64,000 bases of DNA from Nitrospirota bacterium (GCA_021825365.1 JAKAHR010000002.1:1-64000), one strand, 5' to 3'. Counted from the stretch's first letter, positions 543 to 30,058 are shown. The notes: generated by a model from the sequence alone, not told the origin. Made by a program: numbers and translations.

Positions 543-733
543 GATGCTGTCTTTCCTCCCGTTATAGAGTCGCTAAAAGTAATCGATTGTAAAAAGTCAC
601 AACGCGGACGTAACTCGTTTATCGGGTTGACGGACTGGTTGGACATCTTCGCAATTATCTTTCTATTCTTTGCATCGCTCAAAAAGTAGCATGTCCCTTT
701 TTCTGCCTCCAATTTGTTAGGGTGTGTATTCAT
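512..733 (-). CDS. Small ORF translationally coupled to qatD
   Basis: A 73-residue reading frame whose ATG overlaps the qatD stop codon as ATGA (730-733), the usual sign of translational coupling. The sequence shows no recognisable domain, no signal peptide and no membrane segment. Its end overlaps the start of the next small gene by 31 bases. It could be a real accessory gene of the Qat operon, the remnant of a longer gene, or a chance frame; the coupling is the only positive evidence. Confidence 0.35.
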   Translation of the reverse strand: MNTHPNKLEAEKGTCYFLSDAKNRKIIAKMSNQSVNPINELRPRCDFLQSITFSDSITGGKTASWQRSAKRIF

Positions 734-2810: not shown

Positions 2811-2817
2811 ACAGGTC

Positions 2818-7605: not shown

Positions 7606-7629
7606 GGCAAAGTCTTCCTTGGGGGGCAG

Positions 7630-10155: not shown

Positions 10156-10157
10156 GG

Positions 10158-10580: not shown

Positions 10581-10647
10581 TGGCAATAACAGCTGCGGCT
10601 ATGGACGATGATATGACACAGGTCATCGGGAGTATTCATCAGGTCAT

Positions 10648-14681: not shown

Positions 14682-14824
14682 TTAAGCTATCAGAATCACC
14701 ATGCAAAGTCAACGCTTCCACACCGTCCTTCCTGTCTAACCCAACGAAGGCAAACTCAACGTTTCTTGTTCCAAGGCCTTCATAACTTGTTGTTTTGCCT
14801 GACATCCCGGCCCCTGATGCTTAA

Positions 14825-14840
14825 TGGCATCCGACGTGCA
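14825..14840 (+). promoter_or_regulatory. Sigma-54 (-24/-12) promoter of the 14,877-29,869 gene train
   Basis: The sequence TGGCATCCGACGTGCA keeps the invariant GG and GC with the required 10-base gap (GG 14,826-14,827; GC 14,838-14,839). It lies 37 bases upstream of the start of the small exported protein and next to a divergent sigma-54 activator gene, so position and partner both fit. Confidence 0.6.
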
Positions 14841-14876
14841 CATAAGATGCAAGAGCAAAGAAAGGGGGAATATCAA

Positions 14877-15266
14877 ATGAAACGGCTATTTCACCTGGAG
14901 ACAGCAGTCTTGATGATTGCATTAACTGTTGCGTTTGCAGTCAGTGAAGCCGGAGCAGAGGGAAGAAACAGCCTCACCCTCATCAACCATTCCGGCAACA
15001 ACGCTCTGGTCAAGCTTGTGGGGCCAAGCCGCAGGACTATAGAAATTCCCAGCGGCGCGAGCGAGACGGTCAACATAGTCGGAGGTCAGTACTCCATATA
15101 TGTCAGATACGATCTTCACGGCCGATACCGTTATACCAGGGGTGAGTCGTTTCAGATAAAAGAGACCGCCATCAGCTATACGAGGGCCTCTCTCACCCTG
15201 CATGGCGTCATAAACGGCAATTATCACACGCAGGGCAGCTCGGAGAATGAATTTAACCGGCAGTAG
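14877..15266 (+). CDS. Small exported protein of unknown function
   Basis: A 129-residue protein with a Sec-type signal peptide (MKRLFHLETAVLMIALTVAF, cleavage probably after SEAGA). The mature part is short and strand-rich (SLTLINHSGNNALVKLVG; then ETVNIVGGQYSIYVRYD), suggesting a small beta-sandwich exported to the periplasm or beyond. I start it at 14,877 because AAAGGGGG lies 9 bases upstream and the signal peptide begins there; the frame is open further upstream but has no signal. It is the first gene after the sigma-54 promoter at 14,825. Family not recognised. Confidence 0.7.
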   Translation: MKRLFHLETAVLMIALTVAFAVSEAGAEGRNSLTLINHSGNNALVKLVGPSRRTIEIPSGASETVNIVGGQYSIYVRYDLHGRYRYTRGESFQIKETAISYTRASLTLHGVINGNYHTQGSSENEFNRQ

Positions 15267-15502
15267 GCATCACGGCCGGTTATCTCGAAAGCCCGCGCAC
15301 TGCCGCTGTGGCTCCACTCCCGGCGGGCGCCTTTTGGGGGGAGGGCGTCGCGGGCGGAATTAGTGGTGGCCAATGGGAGCTGTGGTGGGGAGCCGGCAGG
15401 AAGTATTGACGGATGGGAGACGCAGCTGTTCAAAGCAGACTATTCACCGAAGAAGGGATGTAAAGATTCCAATTCTAGTAAACGCACTATAGGGAGGTGT
15501 CC
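15267..15502. other. GC-rich spacer between the exported protein and the MoxR-like gene
   Basis: About 235 bases, markedly more GC-rich in its first part (long G runs at 15,336-15,400) than the surrounding island. No gene or clear terminator is visible. The end CACTATAGGGAGG overlaps the ribosome-binding site of the next gene. Confidence 0.4.
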
Positions 15503-16393
15503 ATGAGCGACAATACCGCGAAGATCGGAGAAAAGACCGTAAAGCTGAGCCAGCCATATAGAGCTCCTCTTTCCAAATGCATAGGCAGAGATACGGAAAT
15601 GAGAAAGGTGCTGGCGGCATGGATGGGTGCCACGAGCGGATTACCCCTTTCTCCTCTTCTTATCGGCGAGCCGGGAACGGGGAAAAACAGAATCATCTAT
15701 GAGTGCGCACAAATGTGCGGTAAGGAACTCTACATCTTCCAGGGGCATGAGGATGTAACGTCATCGGACCTTGAATGCGCTGTCAGATTCAGTGATGATG
15801 CCGACCGAAAGATGGACTATATTCTGACCTCCGTCGCCACTGGAGCCATGAGGGGGGCGGTTGTCTTCATAGATGAGATCGCAAAAATAAGGCCCAGAGC
15901 CCTGGCCCCGCTCGCCAGCCTGCTTGACGAACGCCGTTATATAGACAGTTCCCTGCTGGGTGAGCGGATTTATGCCCATCCAGGATTCAGGTTTGTTGCG
16001 GCAACGAACACCACGGACCTGGAAAGCCGTCTGCTCCCTGATTTCATCAGGTCACGCATGCGGCCGGTTATCAGTGTGGGTTATCCAGAGCATAGGGAGA
16101 TTGAACAGATAATCAGGGCGAGATTTAGGACGATGTCCAATAACGGAAATTCCCTGTTGTCGCAGTTCTGGAGTCTCTGGAAAGAAAAGAACGGAGATCA
16201 GTCGCCCACGCCGAGAGACGCGATCTATATCTTCGGATACGCTCTCAATCTCGCAGACTTTGCGACAATAGAGAGCCAACGCCCCTATTCCCTGGAAGCG
16301 GGCACTCATTCAGGCATCATTGAAGCGGGGCATCTGGAGCAGGCATTTGCCGCATTTCATGACCTTCCGCCTTCTCCCGGATGGAGGAAATGA
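15503..16393 (+). CDS. MoxR-like AAA+ ATPase
   Basis: A 296-residue AAA+ ATPase. Walker A is GEPGTGKN (last Thr/Ser replaced by Asn) near residue 52, Walker B is VVFIDEI near residue 115, and the sensor-1 strand is FVAATNTTD near 165; DFIRSRMRP gives the arginine finger region. The layout is that of MoxR-type helper ATPases, which remodel or activate partner proteins. I choose ATG 15,503 over GTG 15,497 because GGAGG at 15,493-15,497 is then correctly spaced. Its stop abuts the next ATG with no gap (TGAATG), so it is tightly coupled to the TraB/Tiki-like protein, its probable partner. Confidence 0.82.
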   Translation: MSDNTAKIGEKTVKLSQPYRAPLSKCIGRDTEMRKVLAAWMGATSGLPLSPLLIGEPGTGKNRIIYECAQMCGKELYIFQGHEDVTSSDLECAVRFSDDADRKMDYILTSVATGAMRGAVVFIDEIAKIRPRALAPLASLLDERRYIDSSLLGERIYAHPGFRFVAATNTTDLESRLLPDFIRSRMRPVISVGYPEHREIEQIIRARFRTMSNNGNSLLSQFWSLWKEKNGDQSPTPRDAIYIFGYALNLADFATIESQRPYSLEAGTHSGIIEAGHLEQAFAAFHDLPPSPGWRK

Positions 16394-18709
16394 ATGGACA
16401 CTAAGAATTTGGTTCTCAGGCTTGGAGAAACAGAACTGATCGTTGTGCCCTCTATCCACTATAATCACGTGTTTGCACGCAGGGTCAACCAAATATGCCA
16501 TGCATCTGAGGGAGCGCCTGAGGCGATAGCAGTAGAACTTGGACCCAGGGCGGCATCTGAGGCAAGACTGTGGCTTTCGGAACTCGGCGGCAAGAATGCC
16601 GGCCTTCCGGTGATGTTCGGACTCATGAAGAGAAACAGGCGGATCCGGGCATCTTTAAGACAAAAGGCTCTCCAGCTTCAAAAGGATACCGGCAAGGACC
16701 TCAGCGAGCTTTCGCCCGAGGTATTAAGGCGTGAACTGGGTTATAGCGGCTATTCACTTCTTTGTCTATCTCCCACTGATTCCATTATCGAGGCTATCCG
16801 CTGCGGCATAGAGCTTGGTCTGCCCTCATTCGGCGTGGATCTGGACGATATGGCAGACGGAGTCTACGATGCCCCGGTCCTGATACAAAATCCGGATGCG
16901 CTGGAAGGCCTGGTTGATTATATCGACCGCAATGCCGATTTGGCCGATCTGCACAGAGATGAAGAAGTCGACCTTCGCAGGGAGACTGTAATGGCTTCCA
17001 GGATCAAGGCCACTCTGCAGCGCTACAAACGGGTGCTATTCGTCTGCGGCATGGCCCACTGGCTGAGCATCAGTAATATGTTGACAGACCAGACTGTCAA
17101 GCCTGCCCTGACTTCAGGGACGCCCGAAAGAATTCAGGGTGAATTCAAGCGCCTGGTTGTACATCCCCTCGTTGCCCTGCAGTACATGGACTCCTTTCCG
17201 AAACTGGCAATTGCGTATGAAAAGACCAGGATTTCGGCGTCAAACCGGGGCCGCAGGGGGGGAGGAGTGAATGAGTTGAGCCCCACGGCCATATTTGACA
17301 AGGAACTGAAAAGGTCGTGCAGAAGATACTTCCATACAAGACGTTACCTTCAGAGTAATGACGAGCGAAAGCAGGATATCGAGAAGATTGCACTGTTTCA
17401 GGGCTATCTTGGAAACCTGTGCGTGCTGAGCAACCGGCAAGTGCCGCATCTTTCGATGATTGCTAATGCCGCCAAGGAGACAATGAGCGCAGACTTCACG
17501 CAGATCCTAACTAAGACATTTATGGATATCCCCTGGGTCTCTCCCGATGACTTCCAGGACTGCGAGCTTCTCAGTCCCTCCGGGGATGAAGGACACAATA
17601 CCGGTGCCACGGTGCTTATAAACGGTGAGGGACGGCAAGGTGGAAGCAAGTTCTTTGTCAGGTGCCAGTCAACAAATGCAGCCCATGCGCCGGCAACGAT
17701 ATCCTTCGACTGGGGCAAAGCCAGAAAACTAATGGAAAGAGCGACCTCCAACTTCACAAGCCACACATGGTCACCATGGAACAGGCTCATAACTTCCCTG
17801 TCACTGAGGGCGATTGAAGAGTCGACCAGGGAAAAAATAACCAATATTCATGTCCAGTTCGAAGGAAGTTTGCTGCATGGCATTGACATCAAGAAGACTA
17901 TTCACTCCTTTTCTAGAGGTAAAGAGACATATTTTGTGCGCGACTGCTCCTGTGCTGCACCAGATCAGCCGGATTTCGTGGGCGGATTCCCAGTAGTTTG
18001 GATTATCCGGCCAGGGAACATCGACGGATCCGATTGGCGCGTCCTGTATGAGCCGTGTAATTACATGGAGCGGCATATAAAGGACAAGGCGGCTTTTGAA
18101 AGGGTAAGGGCAAAAAAAGGCAGCAATATGGTCGCCATCATTGCCTACGGCCAGAGCTATTGCGATGAGAGCACGTTATCAAGACCGTCGGGCGCCCGGT
18201 GCGATAGATACGCGGGCATAACGATTTTTCAGCCTATATCATGGTCGAATAGGCAGTTTGCGCATTGGGCCGAGATAACGGGTTATCGCAGAGCCCCCTT
18301 TTGTGAAACCAGCCTTTTCGGGAACGACTTGTATGGCGGCCTTGCCAAACAGTACAGAGAAAAGCATCGAATCAGGATTGAGGATTACCATTGGACTACC
18401 ACCATGATTCTCCTGGCCATTCCTTATGCAAAGGAGGTGCTCACAGTCGTTGCACCAGATGGGTACCGCCTAGAGCGTGTGGTTCATGAGAAGGCCAGTC
18501 AGTATGGCGTTCAGGTGAAACCCGTCTTTCACAAGAAGTTTGCGGCGGACGACCTGGCCCGACTCGAGCGGTGCCATCTCGTTCCCGCTATAACTTACGA
18601 TCCTGAATGCATATACACCGAGGATATCGAAACATACATAGGGGAAAAGCAGACCGACAACCTCGACCTTATTCCTGCTGCTGTTCGCGACTTTGGATAT
18701 CTGACATAG
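16394..18709 (+). CDS. Large protein with an N-terminal TraB/Tiki-like domain
   Basis: A 771-residue cytoplasmic-looking protein. The first 235 residues fit the TraB/PrgY/Tiki-EreA superfamily: VPSIHYNHVFARRV at the start, IAVELGP near residue 50, FGVDLDDMADG near 150 and RETVMASRIKATL with CGMAHWLSI near 210-225. These enzymes are putative metal hydrolases (proteases or erythromycin-esterase-like). The remaining 530 residues are not recognised; they hold mixed alpha/beta segments, and a Cys-rich spot at YFVRDCSCAAP. Directly coupled to the MoxR-like ATPase upstream and 8 bases from the TPR gene downstream. MoxR-type ATPase plus hydrolase pairs occur in conflict systems, but no exact counterpart is known to me. 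Confidence 0.65.
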   Translation: MDTKNLVLRLGETELIVVPSIHYNHVFARRVNQICHASEGAPEAIAVELGPRAASEARLWLSELGGKNAGLPVMFGLMKRNRRIRASLRQKALQLQKDTGKDLSELSPEVLRRELGYSGYSLLCLSPTDSIIEAIRCGIELGLPSFGVDLDDMADGVYDAPVLIQNPDALEGLVDYIDRNADLADLHRDEEVDLRRETVMASRIKATLQRYKRVLFVCGMAHWLSISNMLTDQTVKPALTSGTPERIQGEFKRLVVHPLVALQYMDSFPKLAIAYEKTRISASNRGRRGGGVNELSPTAIFDKELKRSCRRYFHTRRYLQSNDERKQDIEKIALFQGYLGNLCVLSNRQVPHLSMIANAAKETMSADFTQILTKTFMDIPWVSPDDFQDCELLSPSGDEGHNTGATVLINGEGRQGGSKFFVRCQSTNAAHAPATISFDWGKARKLMERATSNFTSHTWSPWNRLITSLSLRAIEESTREKITNIHVQFEGSLLHGIDIKKTIHSFSRGKETYFVRDCSCAAPDQPDFVGGFPVVWIIRPGNIDGSDWRVLYEPCNYMERHIKDKAAFERVRAKKGSNMVAIIAYGQSYCDESTLSRPSGARCDRYAGITIFQPISWSNRQFAHWAEITGYRRAPFCETSLFGNDLYGGLAKQYREKHRIRIEDYHWTTTMILLAIPYAKEVLTVVAPDGYRLERVVHEKASQYGVQVKPVFHKKFAADDLARLERCHLVPAITYDPECIYTEDIETYIGEKQTDNLDLIPAAVRDFGYLT

Positions 18710-18717
18710 GAGGTTTC

Positions 18718-19659
18718 ATGGGACATAAATATATTGATCAGGACGTAGTTCCGGCCATTTTATCATCTGACGTCGAAGATAATCTGATAGAGCTCTATTT
18801 TGACGATGAGCCTCTGGAAAGCATCTTGTACGGAGTCAACCAGCGCAAGCCATCCCCGGCCAATCTCTTCAGGGCGGCACGTATCTGTATTAATGGCGTC
18901 ATAAACTCATTCAATGAAGGCAATGTTCCCAAGTTCATTGCTGCTGCTTCAGCATTGGGAAACACCGATATGGAGATTTCAGCTCAGACCTGTTCCATAC
19001 TTGCAGGAGCTATTGGAGCTTTCTTCCCATATTATCCAAATCCGGTGATGCCGTACGACCTTGGACCCCTGAAAGAACTCCTGGAAAAGATTTGGACGAT
19101 TGCCGCGCAGAGCGGTGACGACGATCTTCAGGACAAAACGGGAAGTCTGCTCTTCAGATGGTATGAGCATCACGGGAGGTATGAGGAGGCAAGAAAGGTG
19201 CTCGCCAGACTCATTGAGATTGCAACAGAGAAGGGAAACAGACGTGGTGAAGCCCTGTATCTTAACAACCTCGGCTTTGAGTACCTCCTTGAAAGCCGAT
19301 GGAGCGAGGCAATCCCCTATTTTGAAGAGGCAACACAACTATTCATGGAGGCAGATATCACTTTTGAAATGATGAACGCGCGGGCAAATTGCTGGATTTG
19401 TCGATTTGAAGCAGGTGATTTTGGCGACATCTCCAGCACTGAAGCGGATGTGAAGGAGATAATGGACTTTTTTACGGGCAGCGGTCGCTGGTATGAAAGA
19501 AAAGCTCTCGTCCTGATGGCAAAGATCGAGGAACGGAAAGGAAATAGCGAGGGGGCGGCCCAACTGGTCGGCAGGGCTATTGAGTCGGCGAAAAACAGCA
19601 ATACACGGTATCCGGAACTGGATGCTAAATATCTGAGGGCACTGTTGGAAGCCCAGTAA
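18718..19659 (+). CDS. TPR-repeat protein
   Basis: A 313-residue helical-repeat protein. Tetratricopeptide-like motifs are clear in the second half: GRYEEARKVLARLIEIATEKG, EALYLNNLGFEYLLESRWSEA and AIPYFEEATQLFMEA, then RKGNSEGAAQLVGRAIESA. No signal peptide or membrane segment. TPR proteins hold partners together, here probably the MoxR-like and TraB-like proteins encoded just upstream. I use the ATG at 18,718, preceded by TAGGAGGTTTC that overlaps the stop region of the previous gene; an upstream in-frame start lies inside that gene and is unlikely. Confidence 0.78.
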   Translation: MGHKYIDQDVVPAILSSDVEDNLIELYFDDEPLESILYGVNQRKPSPANLFRAARICINGVINSFNEGNVPKFIAAASALGNTDMEISAQTCSILAGAIGAFFPYYPNPVMPYDLGPLKELLEKIWTIAAQSGDDDLQDKTGSLLFRWYEHHGRYEEARKVLARLIEIATEKGNRRGEALYLNNLGFEYLLESRWSEAIPYFEEATQLFMEADITFEMMNARANCWICRFEAGDFGDISSTEADVKEIMDFFTGSGRWYERKALVLMAKIEERKGNSEGAAQLVGRAIESAKNSNTRYPELDAKYLRALLEAQ

Positions 19660-19685
19660 TAATTTCGAATGACAAGGAGATGTCA

Positions 19686-20291
19686 ATGAAAAGTCACCTG
19701 GCGCTATGGTTTTCAATTGGTGTGTTGTTTCTTTGGATACAGATCGGCCACCACTCATACTACACATGGTTTGAGCCCAGGAAGTCGGTTCTCGATAAAT
19801 ATGTGGAAAAAAAAGAGGTTTCCGTGGAGGAACTCGCGAGACTCTATGACGAGGCCTACAGAAAGGTCAAGGCACTCGAGGCGGACAAGGTTATCGACGA
19901 GGATGACTTCAAACGCCTTCGCACGGAGCCGTACAAATCCGAGATACAACTCAGAGCGGATATAGAAGAAAAGGAGTTAACTGCAATAACAATCTTCAGA
20001 GATCGTTCCATGTGGCTATATGGACTCGCCGGTACGATTATTGGCCTTATCCTTTTCCGATGGGTACACGAACTGCTCGGACTGCCGATCATGATAGCAG
20101 CCTTCATGGAAATGATAGTTGCCACACATGACCTGTCGGTCTTCTATAAGGCAGGCCGCGATGCCATTATTCTGAACAAGCTCATATTAGCCACTATAAC
20201 GCTTGCAATCCTTATCGGCATGGCATACATCGCGGGTGTCTTCCACAGGGAAGAAGACCCAAGTGCTGATGAGTCAGCCGGGAATGGATAA
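19686..20291 (+). CDS. Membrane protein with an internal charged coiled coil
   Basis: A 201-residue protein with an N-terminal membrane helix (LALWFSIGVLFLWIQIGHHS), a highly charged helical segment of about 85 residues that would lie outside the cytoplasm, and then three hydrophobic helices (WLYGLAGTIIGLILF; GLPIMIAAFMEMIVATH; LILATITLAILIGMAYIAG). I prefer ATG 19,686 to 19,680 because AGGAG at 19,675-19,679 is too close to the latter. Function unknown; it may anchor the neighbouring TPR/ATPase proteins to the membrane. Confidence 0.7.
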   Translation: MKSHLALWFSIGVLFLWIQIGHHSYYTWFEPRKSVLDKYVEKKEVSVEELARLYDEAYRKVKALEADKVIDEDDFKRLRTEPYKSEIQLRADIEEKELTAITIFRDRSMWLYGLAGTIIGLILFRWVHELLGLPIMIAAFMEMIVATHDLSVFYKAGRDAIILNKLILATITLAILIGMAYIAGVFHREEDPSADESAGNG

Positions 20292-20324
20292 AGGTGATAG
20301 TGACATATCAAGGGACTTCTGACC

Positions 20325-20600
20325 ATGAAGCTATATCGACACCTGCTATCGCAGGTTAACGAAACTTGGGCCGATATGCATAATGACAGGCAGAAATTCT
20401 TAAGCCTGTTTTCCGAAAGGCTGAGGGGGTATCGGATAAAGAAATGCTATACCCAGGAGCAGCTGAGTGAGCTTGCCGGCATATCGTACAAGTACTATCA
20501 GGAACTTGAAAGCGGGAAGAAGGTGCCTTCTGCAATTATTCTTGTGCACCTTTCCGAGGCCCTGGATGTAAGTCTCGATGATTTGTTCAGTGCCCGCTGA
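20325..20600 (+). CDS. XRE-family helix-turn-helix regulator
   Basis: A 91-residue DNA-binding protein. The XRE/Cro-type helix-turn-helix is clear at about residues 30-88: FSERLRGYRIKKCYTQEQLS, then ELAGISYKYYQELESGKKVP, ending SLDDLFSAR. No further domain. It sits within the plus-strand gene train, 33 bases after the membrane protein, and is a likely local regulator of the lipoprotein genes that follow, although no operator could be assigned. Confidence 0.88.
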   Translation: MKLYRHLLSQVNETWADMHNDRQKFLSLFSERLRGYRIKKCYTQEQLSELAGISYKYYQELESGKKVPSAIILVHLSEALDVSLDDLFSAR

Positions 20601-20693
20601 AACGCTGATATGAAAAGGCTGCGGCAAGAATAGGGCAGAAAGGCTTCCATAATGATTCGAGCTTGGAAAGAGTCTATACCCCAGGAGGGCTAT

Positions 20694-22253
20694 ATGAATA
20701 AGATTAAGGCTATGCTTACGGTCGTGGCATTTCTTGCAGTGATTACGCTGACTGGATGTGGGGGAGGCGGAGGCGCACCTGCGGTCAGTGGGGGAAGCAC
20801 AGGAGACAATACTGGGGGAGGGGGGGGATCTGCATCCGAAGCTTCAGCTATGATAGGCTCATCAGGCGGCGTTGTTGAGGTGACCAGCTCTTCAAGCCAG
20901 CTGTTTGGAGTTAAGGTCGAGATTCCCGCAGGAGCACTCTCCACAGAAACGAATATTACGATTAGCAAAGCAACAGATTTGCCATCGTCTCCCTTTGCCA
21001 AATTGGGCAGTGGCATTGCGGCAGAAATCGGCCCGTCAGGCACAGTATTTAAGAAACCGGCAACCATAACAATGCCATATAAGGGCGACATCGACGGGGC
21101 ACTTTGGGGTGTCTTTGTCTTTAGCAAAGAGGAGGGCGGATGGCTTTACCTCCCTTTTTCAAAGATTGATAAAACCTCTAAGAAGGCAATAATCAAGGTT
21201 TCACACTTTACTCCCTACTATTTGACTAATCTTCCAAAGCTTCCGTCGGGGGCGCATAAGTTCTTTATAGAGGGTTTTGATGAAACTGCAAAAATGACTA
21301 TACAGGCAGCGATAAGACACGGCACCTTCTTGCCCTATATGGATTGTGCTGGGGTCGGTTTCCAAGAGGTGATGTCGAAGAGCGAAGCAGAATTAGTTGT
21401 GCGCCTGGGTGATCCCAAACGATATGACGAAAACGGCGTGCTGCATGACTTGCCGGCGGGCTTCAAGTGGATGTCTGCCAGCCAGGCAGAAATTGTGATA
21501 CGAAACAACATTAAGCTTCATGCGAAAGAAACACAAGATATTGCTCCTGATGCATTCGACTTGTATAGCCTGATTGTTCATGAATTAAGTCACCTCTTTG
21601 GTATCGGGACTATTTTGGATAGCACCGACCCCGGGTATCCTCAAAACGGAGTATTTGACGATCACATCGGAGCCGGGGAGATAGTGCGCGCCCTGATTGC
21701 TGAGGATATGGCGGTCTTTGAAATGAAATATCCGGAGTGCAAAGAATCTGAGTGTCCCAGTATAGCTGGCTTTTGGTCTGTCTCCGAAACCATTAACCTC
21801 AACTGCACAGTCGATGGAGAGGTTGCCTCAGACACTATTGTCGGTAGCGGGACAGTCAGAATTAATCAAAGCGGCTGCAACATAAGCTTTGTTGTGCCTT
21901 CGACCAATCTATTGAGATCCGGCACAATAGTCGGTGATAAAGTGCAGCTATCGGGTCAACTGGCGGCAATTGCAGTTGGAACAGCCACCTTCACGGAAAA
22001 TACTGCGGCCCTTTCAGGAACTCTAAGCAGCGATAATATGACAATCAAATTAGCCGGATCTGGAGTTGCGGCCGGTACGGGCTGCGATACGCTGGGCTAT
22101 TGCTTCCCTTTCTCCTGCACAGCCAAAGACAGCGCATCATTAACCAGGTTAGGCACTCAGTCTGCGCTTGCCACTGCCAGAGAGAAGGCTTTCAGGAAAC
22201 CATCATTGTTTCCTGAGGGAGCTTCGAAACTATTTTCAGTCATATCCTTTTGA
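20694..22253 (+). CDS. Exported lipoprotein with ZU5-like and zinc-metalloprotease-like regions
   Basis: A 519-residue lipoprotein. The signal peptide ends in a lipobox (AVITLTGCGGGG), followed by a Gly/Ser-rich linker. Residues about 60-180 resemble a ZU5-type domain (VKVEIPAGALSTETNITISK, then FKKPATITMPY). Residues about 185-330 contain HELSHLFGIG, an HExxH zinc-protease motif with a third possible ligand in DDH some 25 residues on. The C-terminal third is strand-rich with paired cysteines. ATG 20,694 is preceded by GGAGG. It is likely anchored at the cell surface or in the periplasm. A matrixin-like role is possible; the substrate is unknown. Confidence 0.68.
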   Translation: MNKIKAMLTVVAFLAVITLTGCGGGGGAPAVSGGSTGDNTGGGGGSASEASAMIGSSGGVVEVTSSSSQLFGVKVEIPAGALSTETNITISKATDLPSSPFAKLGSGIAAEIGPSGTVFKKPATITMPYKGDIDGALWGVFVFSKEEGGWLYLPFSKIDKTSKKAIIKVSHFTPYYLTNLPKLPSGAHKFFIEGFDETAKMTIQAAIRHGTFLPYMDCAGVGFQEVMSKSEAELVVRLGDPKRYDENGVLHDLPAGFKWMSASQAEIVIRNNIKLHAKETQDIAPDAFDLYSLIVHELSHLFGIGTILDSTDPGYPQNGVFDDHIGAGEIVRALIAEDMAVFEMKYPECKESECPSIAGFWSVSETINLNCTVDGEVASDTIVGSGTVRINQSGCNISFVVPSTNLLRSGTIVGDKVQLSGQLAAIAVGTATFTENTAALSGTLSSDNMTIKLAGSGVAAGTGCDTLGYCFPFSCTAKDSASLTRLGTQSALATAREKAFRKPSLFPEGASKLFSVISF

Positions 22254-22387
22254 TCACTCAAGATGCGTATCAGAGGACTGGAAATCAGGAAAAGGAGGTG
22301 AGCCATACACTGGCCGTTATTGGGACCGGACTAAAGACTCTAAGGAAGTTGTTGTCTTGTGAGAGTAATCGAAAGGAGAAATTTAAT

Positions 22388-22951
22388 ATGAAAGGAATGA
22401 ATAACTACACAGGCCTTGCCACACGGGTTGTACTTCTTTTTGCGGTAGCCATGCTTTATGCATGCGGTACAACGACTTTGGCCTTGAAGCCCGATCCTCA
22501 GGTCGACCTGGGTCAATACCGATCGCTGTCAATTCAGACTCTTTCCACCGACGGCGTCGCAATAAGTGATCTGGCGCAGAGTCGGATTAAGGACAGAATA
22601 AAGGCCGAAATCAGCGGCAAATGTTGCCCTGGCCGATTTGAAAGCATATCTACGGACCGGGCCCGTCCTGAGGACCTGTTACTGACAATCAGGTTCACGG
22701 CGTACGATGAAGGAAACCGTTTTGCCCGCCTCATGCTTGCAGGGCTGGGGGCCATGAAGATCAATGCAGAGATCGAGGTCAAGGATGGAAGATCGGGACA
22801 TGCTATCTGCAGAGGAGAGGCGGGCAAATCATTTGCCTGGGGAGGCGTCGCGGGCGCCATGACAGGCATCGAAGATGTCGAGAAAGACTTTGCGTCTGAG
22901 GTGAGTCGTGGGGTTGGAGAAATGTTAGGTCTTGCGTCTGCGGCAAATTGA
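22388..22951 (+). CDS. DUF4410-like lipoprotein
   Basis: A 187-residue lipoprotein: signal peptide with lipobox (AVAMLYACGTT), then a compact alpha/beta domain resembling DUF4410 (DLGQYRSLSIQTLSTDGVA; then LLLTIRFTAYDEGNRFARLM; then a Gly-rich helix pair VAGAMTGIEDVEKDF). DUF4410 proteins are envelope lipoproteins of unknown function. The start at 22,388 has AAAGGAG 9 bases upstream and gives the signal peptide; the frame is open further up but without a signal. A hairpin at 22,968-23,009 follows the stop. Confidence 0.7.
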   Translation: MKGMNNYTGLATRVVLLFAVAMLYACGTTTLALKPDPQVDLGQYRSLSIQTLSTDGVAISDLAQSRIKDRIKAEISGKCCPGRFESISTDRARPEDLLLTIRFTAYDEGNRFARLMLAGLGAMKINAEIEVKDGRSGHAICRGEAGKSFAWGGVAGAMTGIEDVEKDFASEVSRGVGEMLGLASAAN

Positions 22952-22967
22952 ACTTTTCTCCCGAGTA

Positions 22968-23009
22968 GCGCCACAGGAACAACGTCCCGGCACGTTGTTC
23001 CTGTGGCGC
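22968..23009. repeat. Perfect 18-bp inverted repeat (hairpin)
   Basis: An 18-bp arm (GCGCCACAGGAACAACGT) is repeated in inverse after the 6-base loop CCCGGC. There is no T-run on either side, so it is not a standard intrinsic terminator. It lies 17 bases after the DUF4410 lipoprotein gene. It may protect the 3' end of the mRNA or be a mobile palindromic unit. Confidence 0.75.
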
Positions 23010-23062
23010 GATGATTATGAATCTCGCATGCAAGATTAGACTATCCTTTGGCAAGATTGCGT

Positions 23063-23737
23063 ATGTTAATTCCGATAATTAGCGATATTCATGGAAATAT
23101 GAGCTTCTATGCAGTCATAAAAGACTATGAGTCAGTCGTCTGCCTCGGGGATTATGTGGGAGTTTCGGGTAAAAATCGCGACTCAAATAAATGCATTGAC
23201 CTGCTTAAAAAAAGGAAGGGTAGGTTACTGCTTGGAAATCACGACCTCGAAGTCATTGGAGGGAGCAACCACGATAGCGATATCAGGTTCGTAGTCGACG
23301 ATGTCGAATACAGATATGATTACAATATCAGAGAGGACAACAAAGACTGGCTGAAACGAAGGGCAAGAATGCTATTCAAGGCCAGTCTTCACAGCCGGGT
23401 ATTGTTATTTGCTCATAGTTATTGCCTGGCGGGCCATTTTCAGTATCTGGATAATATGCAGATCATCGGCGAATACCTGGGGAAGATTGAAGGCCGCGAT
23501 AGCATCGCATTCGTTGGACATACGCATGTGCCAGGACTATTTTCTTTCGTCGACAACCGGCAATTGACTCGGCACAAAGTCATATATCAGGAGTGGGTCC
23601 CACTTGAAGCGGGGAAGAAATATCTGGTCAACGTTGGGAGCATCGGGGAGCCAAGGGACGGAAGCAAGGACGGAACCTTTGTGTTGTTTGACTCTGACCA
23701 TACTGGGGTTATGTTCTGTCATGCGAAAGTCGCATAA
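23063..23737 (+). CDS. Calcineurin-like metallophosphoesterase
   Basis: A 224-residue single-domain phosphoesterase with the full motif set: SDIHGN near residue 7, CLGDYVG near 27, LGNHD near 54, FAHSY near 115, VGHTHVPG near 152 and NVGSIGEPRDG near 190. This spacing is that of the YfcE/MJ0936 group, which hydrolyse small phosphodiesters. Nucleotide second messengers are possible substrates in this island, which is inference. The start is uncertain: ATG 23,063 gives a normal N terminus, an in-frame TTG lies 15 bases upstream, and no strong ribosome-binding site is seen. Confidence 0.88.
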   Translation: MLIPIISDIHGNMSFYAVIKDYESVVCLGDYVGVSGKNRDSNKCIDLLKKRKGRLLLGNHDLEVIGGSNHDSDIRFVVDDVEYRYDYNIREDNKDWLKRRARMLFKASLHSRVLLFAHSYCLAGHFQYLDNMQIIGEYLGKIEGRDSIAFVGHTHVPGLFSFVDNRQLTRHKVIYQEWVPLEAGKKYLVNVGSIGEPRDGSKDGTFVLFDSDHTGVMFCHAKVA

Positions 23738-23895
23738 CTATAACCTTGGCGTGGGGTGACCTCTCAGGCATAGTTTGAATTTGGCGTATTTGGGAGCCCC
23801 TTGCGTGTATCCCCATTTTTCTCTTTCCATAATCCTCCCTTTATTCTATAATCTGCCCAAGGATCTCCCAGGGGAAAGGACGTGGGGATCGTCTT

Positions 23896-24096
23896 ATGGG
23901 GAACAAAGCAACTCTTACAAGACTTCCTGATGGTCGTGTTGTCGGAGACATTATCGATAACCACGGCAACGTCCTTTCATCTCGATACTTCGGCACCTTT
24001 ACAGAAGACGAATACCAGCACTTGCTCGATGTGGCCTCCCAGTATGCCCAAGAGATAGGAGTGCAGGTCCAGTCGTTGTTTCCAATGAATAGTTGA
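23896..24096 (+). CDS. Small hypothetical protein
   Basis: A 66-residue acidic protein starting at an ATG with AAAGGACG 8 bases upstream. It contains a short beta-hairpin-like part (TRLPDGRVVGDIIDNHGNV) and a helix (FTEDEYQHLLDVASQYAQ). No family recognised. It lies between the metallophosphoesterase and the EEP enzyme on the same strand and may belong to their operon. Confidence 0.55.
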   Translation: MGNKATLTRLPDGRVVGDIIDNHGNVLSSRYFGTFTEDEYQHLLDVASQYAQEIGVQVQSLFPMNS

Positions 24097-24135
24097 TGCG
24101 CTGAGCGCTATATATCACATCACAGGGGGCGGTTT

Positions 24136-25113
24136 ATGGGAAAGATAAGGATCGGGACTTTCAATTGTGAGAACATGTTTGCCAGGTATAAGTTTCTTAA
24201 CAATTCATGGGAGGGGACCCACTATGTTGATTTCATCCGCCCGACAGTCGCAGAGGGGCTGGTCACTTTTGGTCCCGGTCGGGACGACACCCCAGTTCCA
24301 ACAGAGATTAGCAGGCAGCAGCGCAAGAATACCGCCGCAGTGGTATTGGCCAACAAGCCCGATATCCTGGCCGTCCAGGAAGTGGAAAATCTGCCCACAA
24401 TGAGGCTCTTTAACAGCGACTTTCTGAAACACCATTTCGCCTATTCAGTATTGATCGAGGGGAATGATCAAATGAGGCTTATCGATGTCGGTTTGTATTC
24501 TAACTACCCATTCCTCAATATTCGGACCCATATGTTTGAAACAACAAAGTTCCCGGGGAATAAGGACGAATCGAATATCTTTTCAAGAGACTGCCTAGAG
24601 GTGGAAGTTAACGTTGACGGCAGCATCGTGACGTTCTTTGTTAATCATTTCAAGGCCCAAGACAAATTCACCAAGAGGGGCAAGAACCCCTCCAAGGATG
24701 TGCTTAAGCGAAAGATTCAGGCCGAGCGGGTGACCGAAATTGTCGAGGAAAGCATGAAGGGAGACAAGAATGCCCGTTATGTTGTCCTTGGAGATCTCAA
24801 TTGCCCTCCGCCGTCTGATGGTGGCACGGAGTTATCATCCCTCTATGAGACGCAGGCCCTGGTTTCTGTTGAAGAATCGACAGACGGAGATACGTGGACC
24901 CATTTCTTTGCCGATCCCAAGACAGTCTCAAAGATGGACCATATCTTAATCTCCCCTGCTCTGGCAAAGAATAATAAGAAGGCAAAGCTCATCATCGAAC
25001 GCGGCGGACTTTCTCCGAAGTGCAAACAGTACAAGGGAGAAAGATTTGCCAATGTGACAGACGAGACAGAGGCGTCCGATCACTGCGGCGTATTCCTTGA
25101 TTTAGACATCTGA
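24136..25113 (+). CDS. Endonuclease/exonuclease/phosphatase (EEP) family protein
   Basis: A 325-residue EEP-superfamily enzyme with all core motifs: IGTFNCENMF at the N terminus, LAVQEVEN near residue 80 (metal Glu), VGLYSNYP near 118, VNHFKAQ near 170 (catalytic His), GDLNCPP near 217 (Asp, Asn) and SDHCGVF at the C terminus (Asp-His pair). No signal peptide or membrane helix is visible, so it probably acts in the cytoplasm. The family covers DNases and phosphodiesterases; the full motif set supports an active enzyme but not a specific substrate. In a defence cargo a nuclease role is attractive but unproven. Confidence 0.85.
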   Translation: MGKIRIGTFNCENMFARYKFLNNSWEGTHYVDFIRPTVAEGLVTFGPGRDDTPVPTEISRQQRKNTAAVVLANKPDILAVQEVENLPTMRLFNSDFLKHHFAYSVLIEGNDQMRLIDVGLYSNYPFLNIRTHMFETTKFPGNKDESNIFSRDCLEVEVNVDGSIVTFFVNHFKAQDKFTKRGKNPSKDVLKRKIQAERVTEIVEESMKGDKNARYVVLGDLNCPPPSDGGTELSSLYETQALVSVEESTDGDTWTHFFADPKTVSKMDHILISPALAKNNKKAKLIIERGGLSPKCKQYKGERFANVTDETEASDHCGVFLDLDI

Positions 25114-25207
25114 GACGAAGTCGAGAATCACAAAGTCGTCCCGCATAGGAAGATAAGAGCGGGCGAGCAACGTAAGAACAAGTTAGGACAATTTGCGGAG
25201 GGCAACC

Positions 25208-26383
25208 GTGACGTCGATCAAGCAAAGAGCACAGGCATCGTTAATTATGTTGGTGTTTATTGGGCTGGCAGCCGGATGCGCAGTGCTCCCGAAGGAGAGG
25301 ATAGCCAGCAATGCCATTGATTATAACCTGACAGTCGAGAAGGTTCACAACCAGATACTTCTTCTTAACATAATCCGGGCAAGCAAGCGGCGCCCGATGT
25401 ATTTCACGTCATTTAGTGCAATACGGGGCAATATGACGAATCAGTTTCAGACAGGGAATTTCAACATCCCTCTCAATAATCTGGGAGGCGGACTGGACAA
25501 CGCTTACGTCTTTTCCCCCAGTGCAAGCCACTCTTTTACTCCCTCGTATGAGTTTGCCGTCCTTGATAGCCAGGACTTCATGCGCGGCATCACGACGCCG
25601 GTGAGCATCGCGACGGTGGATTATTACATAAAGCAGGGGTGGCCCCGGGAGATGCTGCTGCATCTGTTCGTCAAGCGCATTGACATCAAACAGGGAGACG
25701 GGACAATGAAGCCATACATGAACTACCCTGGTGAGGAGAAGAAGTCGAAGGAGGAGTCAAAACAAGAGCTCGAGGACTTCCACTCCTATATTCGTAACTG
25801 TGAAGTGCTGACAAGGGATGACTCAAAGCCTATGGGGCATGCCATAGATGTAACACAAGCTTCCGACGTGAAGAATCTTGTCGAAATTCAGAAGGCCGGC
25901 CTTAGGCTTCAAAAAGATGACTGTTGCCCGCAGTATCGCCTAATTGCACCAAGAACGACCCACTATTTCAAATGTGCCGGCGATGAAGTCATCGACGCAA
26001 AAGATGCCTATGCAAGAAAGGGTGATCAATATGCGGGAGTATTCTATCTTAGGTCTCCCGAAGCAATCCTTTACTACTTGGGCGAACTTGCTCGGGAGTC
26101 AATGAAAAATAACGTCCATAGGATTAACGTCTGCTCAGACCCTAAGAAAACCGCACCTCTTTTTGACGTGCGGCAGCTGACAGACGACAGCAAGGATGCA
26201 GCAGTAGCCCTGACCGTCGAATACGAGGCAGAGAAGTATTTCATAAAGAAGGACAACTCTGAAGATCACTGCATATTGGATCGGTCAATGCATGTTTTGT
26301 CGCTGGTGTCGCAACTCATTGCTCTTCAGAAGTCGGCGAAGGAGATGCCGGCAACAGGGGTAGTGGAGGTAATAGGGAAATAG
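25208..26383 (+). CDS. Exported lipoprotein of unknown function
   Basis: A 391-residue lipoprotein: signal peptide with lipobox (LIMLVFIGLAAGCAVLP). The mature N terminus (NAIDYNLTVEKVHNQILLLN followed by IIRASKRRPMYF) resembles a group of uncharacterised envelope lipoproteins seen in proteobacteria. Several cysteines occur in the middle (DDCCPQYR, HYFKCAG), and the C-terminal part is helical. I use GTG 25,208, with GGAGGGC 7 bases upstream, because it begins the signal peptide. It precedes the large TPR membrane protein by 45 bases. No enzymatic motif is visible. Confidence 0.62.
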   Translation: MTSIKQRAQASLIMLVFIGLAAGCAVLPKERIASNAIDYNLTVEKVHNQILLLNIIRASKRRPMYFTSFSAIRGNMTNQFQTGNFNIPLNNLGGGLDNAYVFSPSASHSFTPSYEFAVLDSQDFMRGITTPVSIATVDYYIKQGWPREMLLHLFVKRIDIKQGDGTMKPYMNYPGEEKKSKEESKQELEDFHSYIRNCEVLTRDDSKPMGHAIDVTQASDVKNLVEIQKAGLRLQKDDCCPQYRLIAPRTTHYFKCAGDEVIDAKDAYARKGDQYAGVFYLRSPEAILYYLGELARESMKNNVHRINVCSDPKKTAPLFDVRQLTDDSKDAAVALTVEYEAEKYFIKKDNSEDHCILDRSMHVLSLVSQLIALQKSAKEMPATGVVEVIGK

Positions 26384-26428
26384 ACCTTTAATCGCTCGAG
26401 CTTTCTGACGTTCACAGGAGGGCCCAAG

Positions 26429-28885
26429 ATGGATAATCTCAGCCTGCTCAGGTATTGGACTATGTTCAGGGGAATGCTGTCAGTACTTTCAGAGGCAGCG
26501 CTAAAGTTCGCCATGGCCTATGTGCCTGGTTCGCAAGCCCCTTCCATGGGGGCCCAATATTTGCCTAGAAGGCGAATAAGGCCGGCAAGGAGCCTGCAAC
26601 TCCAGATTATTACGGCACTTCATGTCCTGCTGATAGGGTTTGCAATGTTGCCGGCCATATCGCTTGCCCAACCTGTCAAGAAGGATACAGGATCTATTAT
26701 CAGGAAGGATAAATGCCGCATTGCCAATGCCCATCTGAGCAGTGGTGCGGTCAGTCTGGCTGAAAAGGAATACAACAAAGTCCTTGAGGCACTCCCCCTG
26801 GAAGATTGTGCATTGAGCGGTTTGAGGAATATTGCAGACATCAGATGCCAGGTAGCTCTCACAAGGGCACATAATGGCGACCTTGAGGGAGCAAAGGACA
26901 TGTATCTGCAATTGCTTAAGTCAGATGCCGATCTGAACTGCGCCATCGAGGGATTGGCGACGGTCAGAAACTTGGAGATAAAAGGGCTGATTGAAATTGG
27001 CAGTTATGAGGCAGCGTGGAAGAAACTGGGCACCGCCCGAGCGGCAAATCCCGACGACAAAGAAATAAGAAGCTTATCTGAGGGCCTCCCATTCCAGCTG
27101 CGAGGCAGATATCAGGTATTGATCGAGGCGGGAAAATGGCTAACAGATCTTCTTATTTTTCTTTCGATTGTGGTGCTTCTATGCTTTACGATCCAGCTGC
27201 TTTGGTCCAGACAAAGGCTGAAGCTTGATATCGGCGACTTTGTATTGGGATCTGCCGCATTGGAGAAGGATGCTGCGAAGGCCGGATGCGACCCCAACAA
27301 GGCGGTTGCTACTAGATTTGAGGAAAGCCTGTCGAGCTGGCGCCTCATCCGCAAGCTGGATTCGGTCAAGCCAGTCGCAGGGCCTGTGGAGGTCCCGGCC
27401 CTGCCGGATGTCTCGTTTGTCCCTAAGGAGGCAAAGGCTCTGTGGGGACTGATTACAAAGGTGATCCCTGATAAAGTAGTCACCATCAAGGGCAGCCTCG
27501 AGTTCGACAAGGCCAAAGGGGCCGGCCTTCACGTCAGACTGATAAGCAGCCGCGGAAACGAAGTGTGGCAGTCTCATACTATATGGCAGCGCGACGTCGC
27601 CCCTTTTTATGGATCCATCGCTCAGCCGGTAGAACTCGATGACTATTTGTGGCTGGCGGAGCTTGCCGCAATTTGGGCCTACTGGATGATCCATAAGCAT
27701 ACTCACCCGAAAGATAGCATTCGGCGCTACTTTGGCACTGACAATGTGGATAGCTATATCAGTACACAAGTCGCCGCAAAGATCCACGGCAAAAATCCAA
27801 AACTGGCCATGGAAAGGCTGTATAAGGCGCTAACGGATGACAACGAGAATTTTGTGGCCCGGTACAATTTGGCCAGAACCAGGTCCGCACAGCATATCGA
27901 CGATGAGGAAGACTTGAAGAAGGTCAAGGCGATGACGGAGGATTTCCGCCAAAACAGGGTTCATATCCTTGCGACCTACGCCTTGGGTGTGCTGAAACTG
28001 CATCGCTACTGCAGCTCGAAATGCCAGGATAGTTTGAAGGAGGCAAAAAAACTGCTGGCGGAGGCGGTATCTGACGCCGAAAAGGCCAACGAGAAGGACG
28101 CATTGCTGATAAGCGATGAGTTAATGCAGGTACTGAGGATTGTCTATTTTGATGCCGTTATCCTATCAGGGGATAGGAATGCCCTGGGTCAAATTGATGA
28201 AATTGAAAGGGCAAACTATGCCTCTCCTCGGATTCTCTATGCCTTGGCATGTCATAAGAGCACCTTGGTCAAATACAACATCGTGCCGGAACAAGACGAA
28301 GACAAAGAGCTGGAGAAGGCACTGAAGTATCTGGGAGATGTCTTGCTGGCAAGCAGAAGTTATGCCGACATAGTGTATAAGGATCCATCGCTTGATGTGC
28401 TTCTAAGCAGGAAACAAAAGGAAATCGATGCTATGGTGAGCGACGCAAAGAAGCCATCGACTGCGGTGGCACCTGCCAAATCTTTTTCCCTAGGTGATCT
28501 CGTAGGCGTAGAGCATGGCAAGTGTTTGCAAACAGCCGGGATCCAATCCTTCGCCGACCTCTATTCCAGGGCAAGTACCGTTGAAGGCAGAGAAAAGCTT
28601 AGCAAGAAATGTCTCATAAATGGAGATCTACTGCTGCTATGGGCAGAAACTGCAGAATTACTGCGCATTGCAGGGATTGATGCAGGCATCATCGTACTAT
28701 TGTATTCCGCAAGCATATCGTCTCTGGATAGGCTCAAGAGTTATAGAAGCAAGGAGGGAGAACTGCTGTGCAGATTGCGGGAAGCAGTGCAGTCCGGCGC
28801 AATAAACGTAAAACTGCCTGTAGAAGAAGAATTGAAATGGTGGGTGGAACAGGCACGGCACACTCAATCCCTGATTGAACAGTAG
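26429..28885 (+). CDS. Large TPR-like membrane protein
   Basis: An 818-residue protein with two membrane segments: about residues 55-82 (IITALHVLLIGFAMLP) and about 232-253 (LLIFLSIVVLLCFTIQLLW). Between them lies a TPR-like part outside the membrane (VSLAEKEYNKVLEALP; GDLEGAKDMYLQLLKSD), and the long C-terminal cytoplasmic part contains more helical repeats (KNPKLAMERLYKALTDDNEN). The ribosome-binding site GGAGGG is 9 bases before the ATG. I see no catalytic motif. It probably spans the membrane and links the exported lipoproteins to cytoplasmic partners; this is inferred from topology and neighbours. Confidence 0.65.
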   Translation: MDNLSLLRYWTMFRGMLSVLSEAALKFAMAYVPGSQAPSMGAQYLPRRRIRPARSLQLQIITALHVLLIGFAMLPAISLAQPVKKDTGSIIRKDKCRIANAHLSSGAVSLAEKEYNKVLEALPLEDCALSGLRNIADIRCQVALTRAHNGDLEGAKDMYLQLLKSDADLNCAIEGLATVRNLEIKGLIEIGSYEAAWKKLGTARAANPDDKEIRSLSEGLPFQLRGRYQVLIEAGKWLTDLLIFLSIVVLLCFTIQLLWSRQRLKLDIGDFVLGSAALEKDAAKAGCDPNKAVATRFEESLSSWRLIRKLDSVKPVAGPVEVPALPDVSFVPKEAKALWGLITKVIPDKVVTIKGSLEFDKAKGAGLHVRLISSRGNEVWQSHTIWQRDVAPFYGSIAQPVELDDYLWLAELAAIWAYWMIHKHTHPKDSIRRYFGTDNVDSYISTQVAAKIHGKNPKLAMERLYKALTDDNENFVARYNLARTRSAQHIDDEEDLKKVKAMTEDFRQNRVHILATYALGVLKLHRYCSSKCQDSLKEAKKLLAEAVSDAEKANEKDALLISDELMQVLRIVYFDAVILSGDRNALGQIDEIERANYASPRILYALACHKSTLVKYNIVPEQDEDKELEKALKYLGDVLLASRSYADIVYKDPSLDVLLSRKQKEIDAMVSDAKKPSTAVAPAKSFSLGDLVGVEHGKCLQTAGIQSFADLYSRASTVEGREKLSKKCLINGDLLLLWAETAELLRIAGIDAGIIVLLYSASISSLDRLKSYRSKEGELLCRLREAVQSGAINVKLPVEEELKWWVEQARHTQSLIEQ

Positions 28886-28921
28886 GGTGATACCGCCGGT
28901 CTAGAAACGGAGGAATCGAAT

Positions 28922-29869
28922 ATGAGTTACACCTCTTTTTCCGTGTTCCATGTCGTCATCTTCTCAAGTGACGATGTGGTCATTTCCGGACATGAAGAAC
29001 ACTTCTACCAATCATATGGAACCGGCAACGAGGTTCTTCAGCCAGGCAACTATGTTTCAGTACTATGCGATGTCAATTCAGTTGGAGGCAACCGGTCCGG
29101 GGTGAGAAGCATATTCGCAGCCGACGTCCGCCTCGACCAGGAAGCCAGATCTGTGGCGATTTTTATGGCGATTCTCATGACTCATGGACTCTTAGGTCGA
29201 AACGATGTCATGACTGACAAATACAACTTGCGTTATGGCGATTGTAATGCCCGTGTCGCGACTCTTGATGTAGGCAAAGAGAGCAAGGCCATCACAGTGC
29301 GTCCCATCAGACCCGACAATCTCACTTCTGCTCAGCGACAAAAGACTATCGGAGCGATTAAATGGGCCCCGTGGGCATGGGATAACGCAACACGCGAGGC
29401 AAAAGATGCGATGGGGGTCGATTATACGGAACAGGACAACGCCAGAGAACTGCTTCGCAGAGGCGTTGAACTCGCTACTGCTACAAATCTTGTCGATGCA
29501 GACAAGACAATTAGAGAAGCCCTGGGGATTGACCGGACTTTGGTCGGTGCTCGTCTCGAACTTGGCAAGGTGGCTATCCATCGAGGCGATATTCAGGAAG
29601 CGATCGGGTGGTTCAACAGAGAACTAACAGAGGCAAAAGAACCGATGACTCTTGAGGCCAATGACTATCTTTCTGCAATATATCGAGCTCTTGACGATGA
29701 CATAGGCGCGGCACGTCATTCCGAGGCTGCGCGAAAAACGCCGGGGTATCACAGGCACCCAAGTGCGCTATCGCCAGAGGTGGTGTCGTTGATACAATCG
29801 GCAGTAAGAATTTCGAAGACTCACCAAGGCACGGTGGCCAGCAGAAGATGGTGGCAATTCTGGAAATAG
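28922..29869 (+). CDS. TPR-repeat protein, last gene of the train
   Basis: A 315-residue protein. Residues about 1-140 are an unrecognised mixed domain (YTSFSVFHVVIFSSDDVVIS; then ILMTHGLLGRNDVM). Residues about 170-280 are TPR-like (AREAL-type helices: ADKTIREALGIDRTLVGARL; then GDIQEAIGWFNRELTEAKEP). It begins 36 bases after the membrane TPR gene with GGAGG upstream of the ATG. Nothing follows it on the plus strand for over 5 kb, so it ends the plus-strand gene train. Confidence 0.68.
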   Translation: MSYTSFSVFHVVIFSSDDVVISGHEEHFYQSYGTGNEVLQPGNYVSVLCDVNSVGGNRSGVRSIFAADVRLDQEARSVAIFMAILMTHGLLGRNDVMTDKYNLRYGDCNARVATLDVGKESKAITVRPIRPDNLTSAQRQKTIGAIKWAPWAWDNATREAKDAMGVDYTEQDNARELLRRGVELATATNLVDADKTIREALGIDRTLVGARLELGKVAIHRGDIQEAIGWFNRELTEAKEPMTLEANDYLSAIYRALDDDIGAARHSEAARKTPGYHRHPSALSPEVVSLIQSAVRISKTHQGTVASRRWWQFWK

Positions 29870-30058
29870 CTCTGTCAAACTGCTGTGATTATGGTTCATG
29901 TGCTCATGACAATGGACATTGCAATTCGATCTCAGGAAGCATAGTTCAGCTAGGCGTCGAAGCGAGGGGAATTTGGAAGACACGTCTCTTATGCTTAATA
30001 TTCCCGAAAAGGGATCTATATCACATCGGGATAGACAACAGGCTGCTGAACCTGAACA

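What the first reader, a model, noticed from the sequence alone, without database searches (positions are those of the whole stretch)
14825..29869. Sigma-54-controlled MoxR-TraB/Tiki-TPR-lipoprotein gene train: candidate undescribed system
Thirteen or so plus-strand genes in 15 kb begin behind a -24/-12 promoter and beside a dedicated sigma-54 activator. A MoxR-like ATPase abuts a TraB/Tiki-like protein with no gap, and the train also encodes TPR scaffolds, three lipoproteins (one with HExxH), membrane proteins, a metallophosphatase and an EEP enzyme. The mixture of ATPase, hydrolase and envelope parts suggests a surveillance or export machine spanning the envelope. As transposon cargo it is likely defence or stress related.
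Basis: inference. Interest (0 to 1): 0.85.

Follow-up and report, generated by a model that had tools for sequence, protein, structure and literature searches.

The report
Four-gene MoxR–TraB–TPR island cassette
Inside a bacterial island that also carries predicted phage-defence genes sits a compact set of genes (a molecular-motor ring, a probable hydrolase, a scaffold protein and a motor-type regulator) that recurs in the same order in unrelated bacteria and looks like an undescribed, probably defensive, machine; the other genes of the reported 13-gene train are not shown to be part of it.

Summary
The genes are real, but the 15-kb train is not one conserved system. The conserved unit is smaller and starts outside the reported interval: a divergent bEBP-type AAA+ gene (12942-14681, minus strand), moxR (15503-16393), a 771-aa TraB/DUF5682-like protein (16394-18709) and a TPR protein (18718-19659). 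One Acidobacteria locus has all four in the same order and orientation. A second locus of the same MAG has moxR-traB-tpr1, an Omnitrophota locus has moxR-traB followed by an unrelated TPR gene, and a Nitrospirales locus keeps a decayed copy. The TraB protein has invariant H22, E48, D149, R196, E197 and H222, falls below Pfam's DUF5682 cut-off, and belongs with a wider MoxR+TraB pair lineage. No gene from 19680 to 29869 occurs near the relatives, and an 18-bp perfect hairpin splits the train at 22968-23009. The -24/-12 site is no better than chance. The bEBP lacks a helix-turn-helix and its relatives lost GAFTGA, so sigma-54 control is doubtful. The core has no predicted membrane segment, so 'spanning the envelope' does not fit it. 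Best reading: a cytosolic ATP-driven MoxR/TraB-hydrolase machine, probably defence-related. Nothing functional was tested.

The parts
12942..14681 (-). bEBP-type AAA+ protein (579 aa), divergent from moxR; variant GSFTGA loop, no HTH, own N- and C-terminal regions
   Evidence: Pfam Sigma54_activat 1.5e-59, no HTH hit; full-length 32% homologue in the same divergent position in L008; GAFTGA lost in the L008 and L007 homologues
15503..16393 (+). MoxR-type AAA+ ATPase (ORF from 15497); Walker A GEPGTGKN (N in place of the usual T/S), Walker B VFIDE, conserved IRSR
   Evidence: Pfam AAA_5 2.6e-21; 48-63% identical neighbour of traB in L007-L010; motifs
16394..18709 (+). TraB/Tiki-fold protein, distant relative of DUF5682 (771 aa); invariant H22, E48, D149, R196, E197, H222; C-terminal half of unknown fold
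   Evidence: alignment A3; hhalign to a DUF5682 profile 95.9%, E 5.4e-9; AF2 N-domain confident; Foldseek best hit to a Tetrahymena complex IV subunit, probably its TraB-family one
18718..19659 (+). TPR protein (313 aa) with conserved N-terminal LxFDDExLExxLYG region
   Evidence: 43-44% identical in L007 and L008, same position; decayed remnant in L004
14877..15266 (+). small secreted protein (129 aa, N-terminal hydrophobic segment); not conserved with the core
   Evidence: sequence; hydropathy; no hit in loci
19680..22951 (+). accessory genes, membership not supported: two-TM protein, Xre regulator, HExxH lipoprotein, DUF4410 lipoprotein
   Evidence: Pfam; absent from cassette relatives
22968..23009 (.). 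18-bp perfect hairpin splitting the train
   Evidence: RNA fold of 22945-23045 -39.1 kcal/mol, z -4.9; only inverted repeat found in 14700-30100 at 13 bp or more within 60 bp
23048..29869 (+). further cargo, membership not supported: metallophosphatase, small ORF, EEP enzyme, lipoprotein, TPR/DUF4332 membrane protein, TPR protein
   Evidence: Pfam; absent from cassette loci; last three proteins share no neighbourhood in 396 Nitrospirota genomes

Best explanation
The conserved unit is a cytosolic ATP-driven cassette: a MoxR AAA+ ring, a TraB/Tiki-fold putative metal-dependent hydrolase of the DUF5682 superfamily, a TPR adaptor, and a bEBP-derived AAA+ regulator. I propose that the TPR protein recruits or recognises a target, that the MoxR ring remodels or unmasks the TraB enzyme, and that the enzyme then acts on a cellular or invader molecule. 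The bEBP-type protein would gate the system, either by sigma-54 activation in copies that keep the loop or as a direct AAA+ switch in those that lost it. The island setting suggests a role in biological conflict. Shown here: the genes, their order, conserved synteny, conservation of putative active-site residues, and joint inheritance of MoxR and TraB. Inferred: physical assembly, hydrolase chemistry, the roles of the parts, and defence.
For: Synteny: bEBP/moxR/traB/tpr1 in the same order and orientation in L008; moxR-traB-tpr1 in L007; moxR-traB in L009; decayed moxR-traB-tpr1 in L004/L010. The cassette TraB proteins form one side of a 100/100 branch spanning Nitrospirota, Acidobacteriota and Omnitrophota, and the MoxR tree shows the same split. 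In the wider family, moxR lies in 12 of 14 loci that were found with TraB alone, directly upstream in 10, and beside TraB in further Acidobacteria loci. Six putative active-site residues are invariant in all 13 TraB proteins. Gaps of 0 and 8 bp join the three genes. Conflict genes lie nearby: QatABCD-like, SLATT, RelA/SpoT-SLOG-RyR, NUDIX and TIR-HEAT in the window; RelA/RyR and NUDIX with L007; TIR-NB-ARC-TPR with L009. A bEBP AAA to RelA/SpoT fusion occurs in L007.
Against: Few members: four intact loci from three genomes, one of them (Omnitrophota) without a detectable tpr1 homologue or bEBP. All the relatives are MAG contigs. The cassette MoxR copies carry GKN instead of GK[T/S] in Walker A, so ATPase activity is not certain. 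The C-terminal half of TraB has no fold assignment. No PADLOC family matches TraB. No relatives in phages, plasmids or viral contigs. Hydrolase activity rests only on residue conservation and a weak fold match (E 8.6e-3).
Confidence: 0.5

Rival explanations
1. The MoxR-TraB pair is a general protein-quality or complex-maturation chaperone, for example for metal insertion into an enzyme, and the island copy is a non-defensive stress module.
For: The wider 'compact' clade (L011, L014-L020 and others) shows a bare MoxR+TraB pair among ordinary genes, without TPR, bEBP or obvious defence neighbours. MoxR-vWA pairs are known to act in complex assembly (PMC7159879).
Against: The cassette clade has its own extra genes, a patchy distribution (3 of 396, of which one is the distant kind; 1 of 285; full-length matches only in G396) and conflict-gene neighbours in the window, L007 and L009.
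Confidence: 0.3
2. One reading: the whole 13-gene train is one sigma-54-controlled envelope surveillance or export machine.
For: Same strand for 15 kb; lipoproteins and membrane proteins present; rpoN exists in the genome; the window's bEBP keeps GSFTGA.
Against: Downstream genes are absent from all cassette relatives and the last three share no neighbourhood elsewhere in the phylum. Hairpin at 22968. The -24/-12 site is at chance level. The core has no TM segments. The bEBP homologues lost GAFTGA.
Confidence: 0.07
3. Independent cargo genes that only look like a train; the cassette in the window may be inactive.
For: Islands accumulate unrelated genes; a related copy in Nitrospirales is decayed.
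Against: The four-gene order is conserved across phyla at about 32-63% identity, reading frames are intact, and putative catalytic residues of TraB are conserved.
Confidence: 0.13

Closest known systems
DUF5682 (PF18934) operons: MoxR - DUF5682 - vWA
   Same: A MoxR-type ATPase next to a TraB-like large protein; homologous over about 284 columns including the N-terminal H and E and the CGxxH motif; weak MoxR hits beside DUF5682 in L063, L070 and L071.
   Different: Below the Pfam cut-off (12.4 vs 26 bits). In several Acidobacteria controls DUF5682 is followed by a ~380-420 aa protein, which I take to be the vWA protein from memory. No vWA gene was recognised in the window's train, which has TPR instead. 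A vWA-like gene in L008 lies in a separate divergent set and is only my reading of the sequence.
MoxR-vWA ternary conflict systems (VMAP, iSTAND, FtsH, beta-propeller) of Kaur et al. 2020, PMC7159879
   Same: MoxR-centred, multi-component, linked to conflict genes; TPR scaffolds common.
   Different: Those are built on a vWA partner. The paper's main text does not mention TraB, Tiki or EreA.
TraB/PrgY/GumN/Tiki family
   Same: Fold of the N-terminal domain and conserved H/E/H positions.
   Different: Pfam TraB score 12.6 against a cut-off of 26.8; about 500 extra residues; no TM segment or signal; next to an ATPase gene.
Bacterial enhancer-binding proteins
   Same: AAA+ Sigma54_activat domain; the window copy keeps a GSFTGA loop.
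   Different: No HTH; distinct N and C regions; GAFTGA lost in the L007 and L008 relatives, a motif whose mutation usually abolishes activation (PMC7175178).

Membership tests
DUF5682 (PF18934) | whole-protein score over the Pfam gathering cut-off (26 bits) | tested here: not met
   12.4 bits, E 0.05; no hit at all for the L008 and L009 homologues
DUF5682 (PF18934) | homology by profile-profile comparison | tested here: met
   hhalign 95.9%, E 5.4e-9, N-terminal half only
MoxR-vWA ternary systems | MoxR-type AAA+ ATPase | tested here: met
   AAA_5 2.6e-21, Walker B and arginine motif; Walker A has N after GK
MoxR-vWA ternary systems | vWA partner encoded alongside | tested here: not met
   no vWA family hit among the genes of 12942-29869; a fold-level vWA in the TraB C-terminus could not be resolved
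TraB/Tiki fold | conserved H (beta-1), E (VEL) and GxxH positions | tested here: met
   H22, E48, H222 invariant in 13 of 13
TraB/Tiki fold | similar solved structure | tested here: inconclusive
   best Foldseek hit 7w5z_E, E 8.6e-3, prob 0.96; a related supercomplex paper reports a TraB-family subunit; chain identity inferred
bEBP / sigma-54 activator | GAFTGA loop | tested here: inconclusive
   GSFTGA in the window; absent in the L007 and L008 homologues
bEBP / sigma-54 activator | C-terminal HTH (usual, absent in group 5) | tested here: not met
   no HTH hit, whereas the chromosomal bEBP in the same window has HTH_8
sigma-54 promoter before the train | -24/-12 element beyond chance | tested here: not met
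   84 matches vs 84.2 expected; not clearly conserved upstream of moxR in relatives
known anti-phage systems | PADLOC match of core proteins | tested here: not met
   no match for TraB; only weak generic AAA and TPR matches for MoxR and TPR; the bEBP was not scanned

The most novel reading that the evidence does not exclude
A new class of immune machine in which a MoxR ring drives a TraB/Tiki-fold hydrolase effector without a vWA co-chaperone, gated by a bEBP-derived AAA+ switch that has left transcription control and, through fusion in a relative, is tied to RelA/SpoT-SLOG nucleotide signalling.
Probability: 0.25. Interest if true: 0.85.

Novelty: new variant of a known kind. Interest (0 to 1): 0.6.

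Why it matters
MoxR-centred conflict systems are known with vWA partners. A recurrent MoxR + TraB-fold enzyme cassette would give the uncharacterised DUF5682/TraB superfamily a setting, a set of testable residues and possible partners. The loss of GAFTGA in relatives of its bEBP-type companion would be an unusual case of a transcription-activator ATPase repurposed as part of another machine.

Tried and rejected
Sigma-54 promoter as evidence: rejected by shuffles; the L008 site at 9019 is suggestive, but such sites occur by chance in 17-36% of regions of that size.

T7-promoter-like string before moxR: not above chance.

Train as one system: no downstream gene near relatives. A concatenated query of the last three proteins found almost only weak relatives of the lipoprotein N-terminus.

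Viral, plasmid and phage relatives: none.

Homology of the L009 TPR gene to tpr1: not detected.

C-terminal fold of TraB by a second model: confidence too low, no match.

TnsE identity of 32317-33993: Pfam hit below cut-off, no solved relative.

Mu/TnsB-type transposase in the genome: the search also found nothing in its controls, so it is uninformative.

Full report
What is there. The window has 14 plus-strand ORFs between 14877 and 29869. Pfam gives MoxR-type AAA_5, TPR, Xre, a ZU5 lipoprotein with HExxH, a DUF4410 lipoprotein, metallophosphatase, EEP and DUF4332/TPR proteins. moxR and traB abut with no gap, and tpr1 follows after 8 bp with a clear ribosome-binding site.

Promoter. The -24/-12 site at 14825 has three mismatches. 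The window has 84 sites with up to three mismatches and 84.2 are expected. The genome does encode RpoN, and L008 has a fair site close before moxR, but such sites occur by chance in 17-36% of regions of that size. The claim of sigma-54 control is open, not shown.

Synteny. The TraB-like protein alone was used to find relatives. In 396 Nitrospirota genomes three matched, including the window's own. A genome-collection scan, with an alignment of the first three proteins as query, gave 14 loci. Against these loci, moxR, traB and tpr1 of the window hit in order in two Acidobacteria contigs, with the divergent bEBP in the same place in L008. In L009 (Omnitrophota) moxR and traB are present. In the Nitrospirales locus traB is truncated and tpr1 is broken. 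None of the proteins encoded at 19680-29869 had a hit in any of the loci. In 396 Nitrospirota genomes the last three proteins gave almost only relatives of the lipoprotein's N-terminal half, scattered and mostly at 22-31% identity. The unit under selection is therefore bEBP-moxR-traB-tpr1, and the rest is island cargo on present evidence. An 18-bp perfect hairpin (z -4.9) further separates 22951 from 23048; it lacks a T tract, so its role is unknown.

The TraB protein. It aligns over its full length with a second clade of 600-810 aa proteins from Geobacteraceae, Wallbacteria, Planctomycetota, Chlamydiae, Armatimonadetes and Nitrospirota. H22, E48, D149, R196, E197 and H222 are invariant. The cassette and compact clades lie on either side of a 100/100 branch, and the MoxR tree shows the same division, so the two genes appear to be inherited together. 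moxR is found in 12 of 14 loci, directly upstream in 10; L012 starts inside traB and L013 shows none. Profile comparison joins the family to DUF5682 (95.9%, E 5.4e-9), but the protein is below the DUF5682 cut-off. AF2 models the N-terminal TraB domain well and the C-terminal half poorly. The best solved match is a Tetrahymena complex IV subunit, and a supercomplex paper describes a TraB-family subunit there.

MoxR. Walker B and the IRSR motif are kept. All five cassette copies have N where Walker A normally has T or S after GK, while the compact clade has T. This is a shared, clade-specific change that leaves ATPase activity to be shown.

The bEBP-type protein. The window copy has a GSFTGA loop and no HTH. 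The L008 homologue, in the same place, and the L007 relative have lost the motif, and L007's is fused to RelA/SpoT and TPR with an apparent SLOG-type segment. Since GAFTGA mutants usually fail to activate transcription (PMC7175178), I infer that this lineage has partly left transcription control. This is inference from few sequences.

Setting. The island includes a QatABCD-like operon, a SLATT protein, RelA/SpoT-SLOG-RyR, NUDIX and TIR-HEAT. L007 carries RelA/RyR and NUDIX relatives, and L009 has a TIR-NB-ARC-TPR gene. comM is cut at about 34089 and no other half was found in the assembly, consistent with insertion of a mobile element; no transposase was identified. Guilt by association favours a conflict role, but only a handful of loci exist.

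Mechanism and confidence. I think it most likely that the MoxR ring, helped by the TPR protein, remodels or activates the TraB enzyme, and that the bEBP-type ATPase gates this (about 0.5 overall). The enzymatic reaction, target and trigger are unknown.

Known kinds. MoxR-vWA ternary systems are described (PMC7159879), but the main text does not mention TraB, Tiki or EreA. No open-access paper held here mentions DUF5682. The vWA assignment for genes downstream of DUF5682 and in L008 is my reading of sequence, not a database hit. I file this as a new variant of MoxR-centred systems, not as a member of the ternary family, because the vWA feature was not met.

Noticed in passing
730-5594: Minus-strand KAP ATPase, unknown protein, QueC-like and TatD genes: the QatABCD anti-phage layout (identified from gene order and Pfam; no PADLOC scan of these).
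   Followed up: partly
6505-12888: SLATT membrane protein, RelA/SpoT-TPR-SLOG-RyR protein, NUDIX and TIR-HEAT in one plus-strand run: looks like a nucleotide-signalling conflict system.
   Followed up: partly
L007:17012-20071: bEBP-type AAA domain without GAFTGA fused to RelA/SpoT and TPR, with an apparent SLOG-type segment; beside the cassette in an Acidobacteria MAG.
   Followed up: partly
15503-16393 and L007-L010: All five cassette MoxR copies have GKN in Walker A instead of GK followed by T or S; the compact clade has GKT.
   Followed up: partly
L008:1479-8773: Behind the divergent bEBP lie a 747-aa AAA protein, a MoxR-like P-loop protein and a protein with a vWA-like DxSxS motif; the last two have no significant Pfam hit.
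   Followed up: partly
33900-34100: comM (YifB) is cut at about residue 284 (position 34089) and no 3' half is in the assembly; a 14-bp repeat (33917, 34067) lies near the junction.
   Followed up: partly
32317-33993: 558-aa ORF next to the comM junction with a sub-threshold TnsE_C hit; may be a transposition protein.
   Followed up: partly
30059-30502: Xre/MbcA/ParS-type antitoxin; the neighbouring 497-aa ORF has no recognised toxin domain.
   Followed up: no
L004:15600-19996: Decayed copy of the cassette in a Nitrospirales genome: open MoxR, truncated TraB, broken TPR gene.
   Followed up: yes
22968-23009: 18-bp perfect palindromic hairpin, unique in its exact form in the genome.
   Followed up: yes
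L017:6220-9720: SNF2 helicase with a weak SWIM-finger hit between MoxR and TraB in a Geobacteraceae MAG.
   Followed up: no
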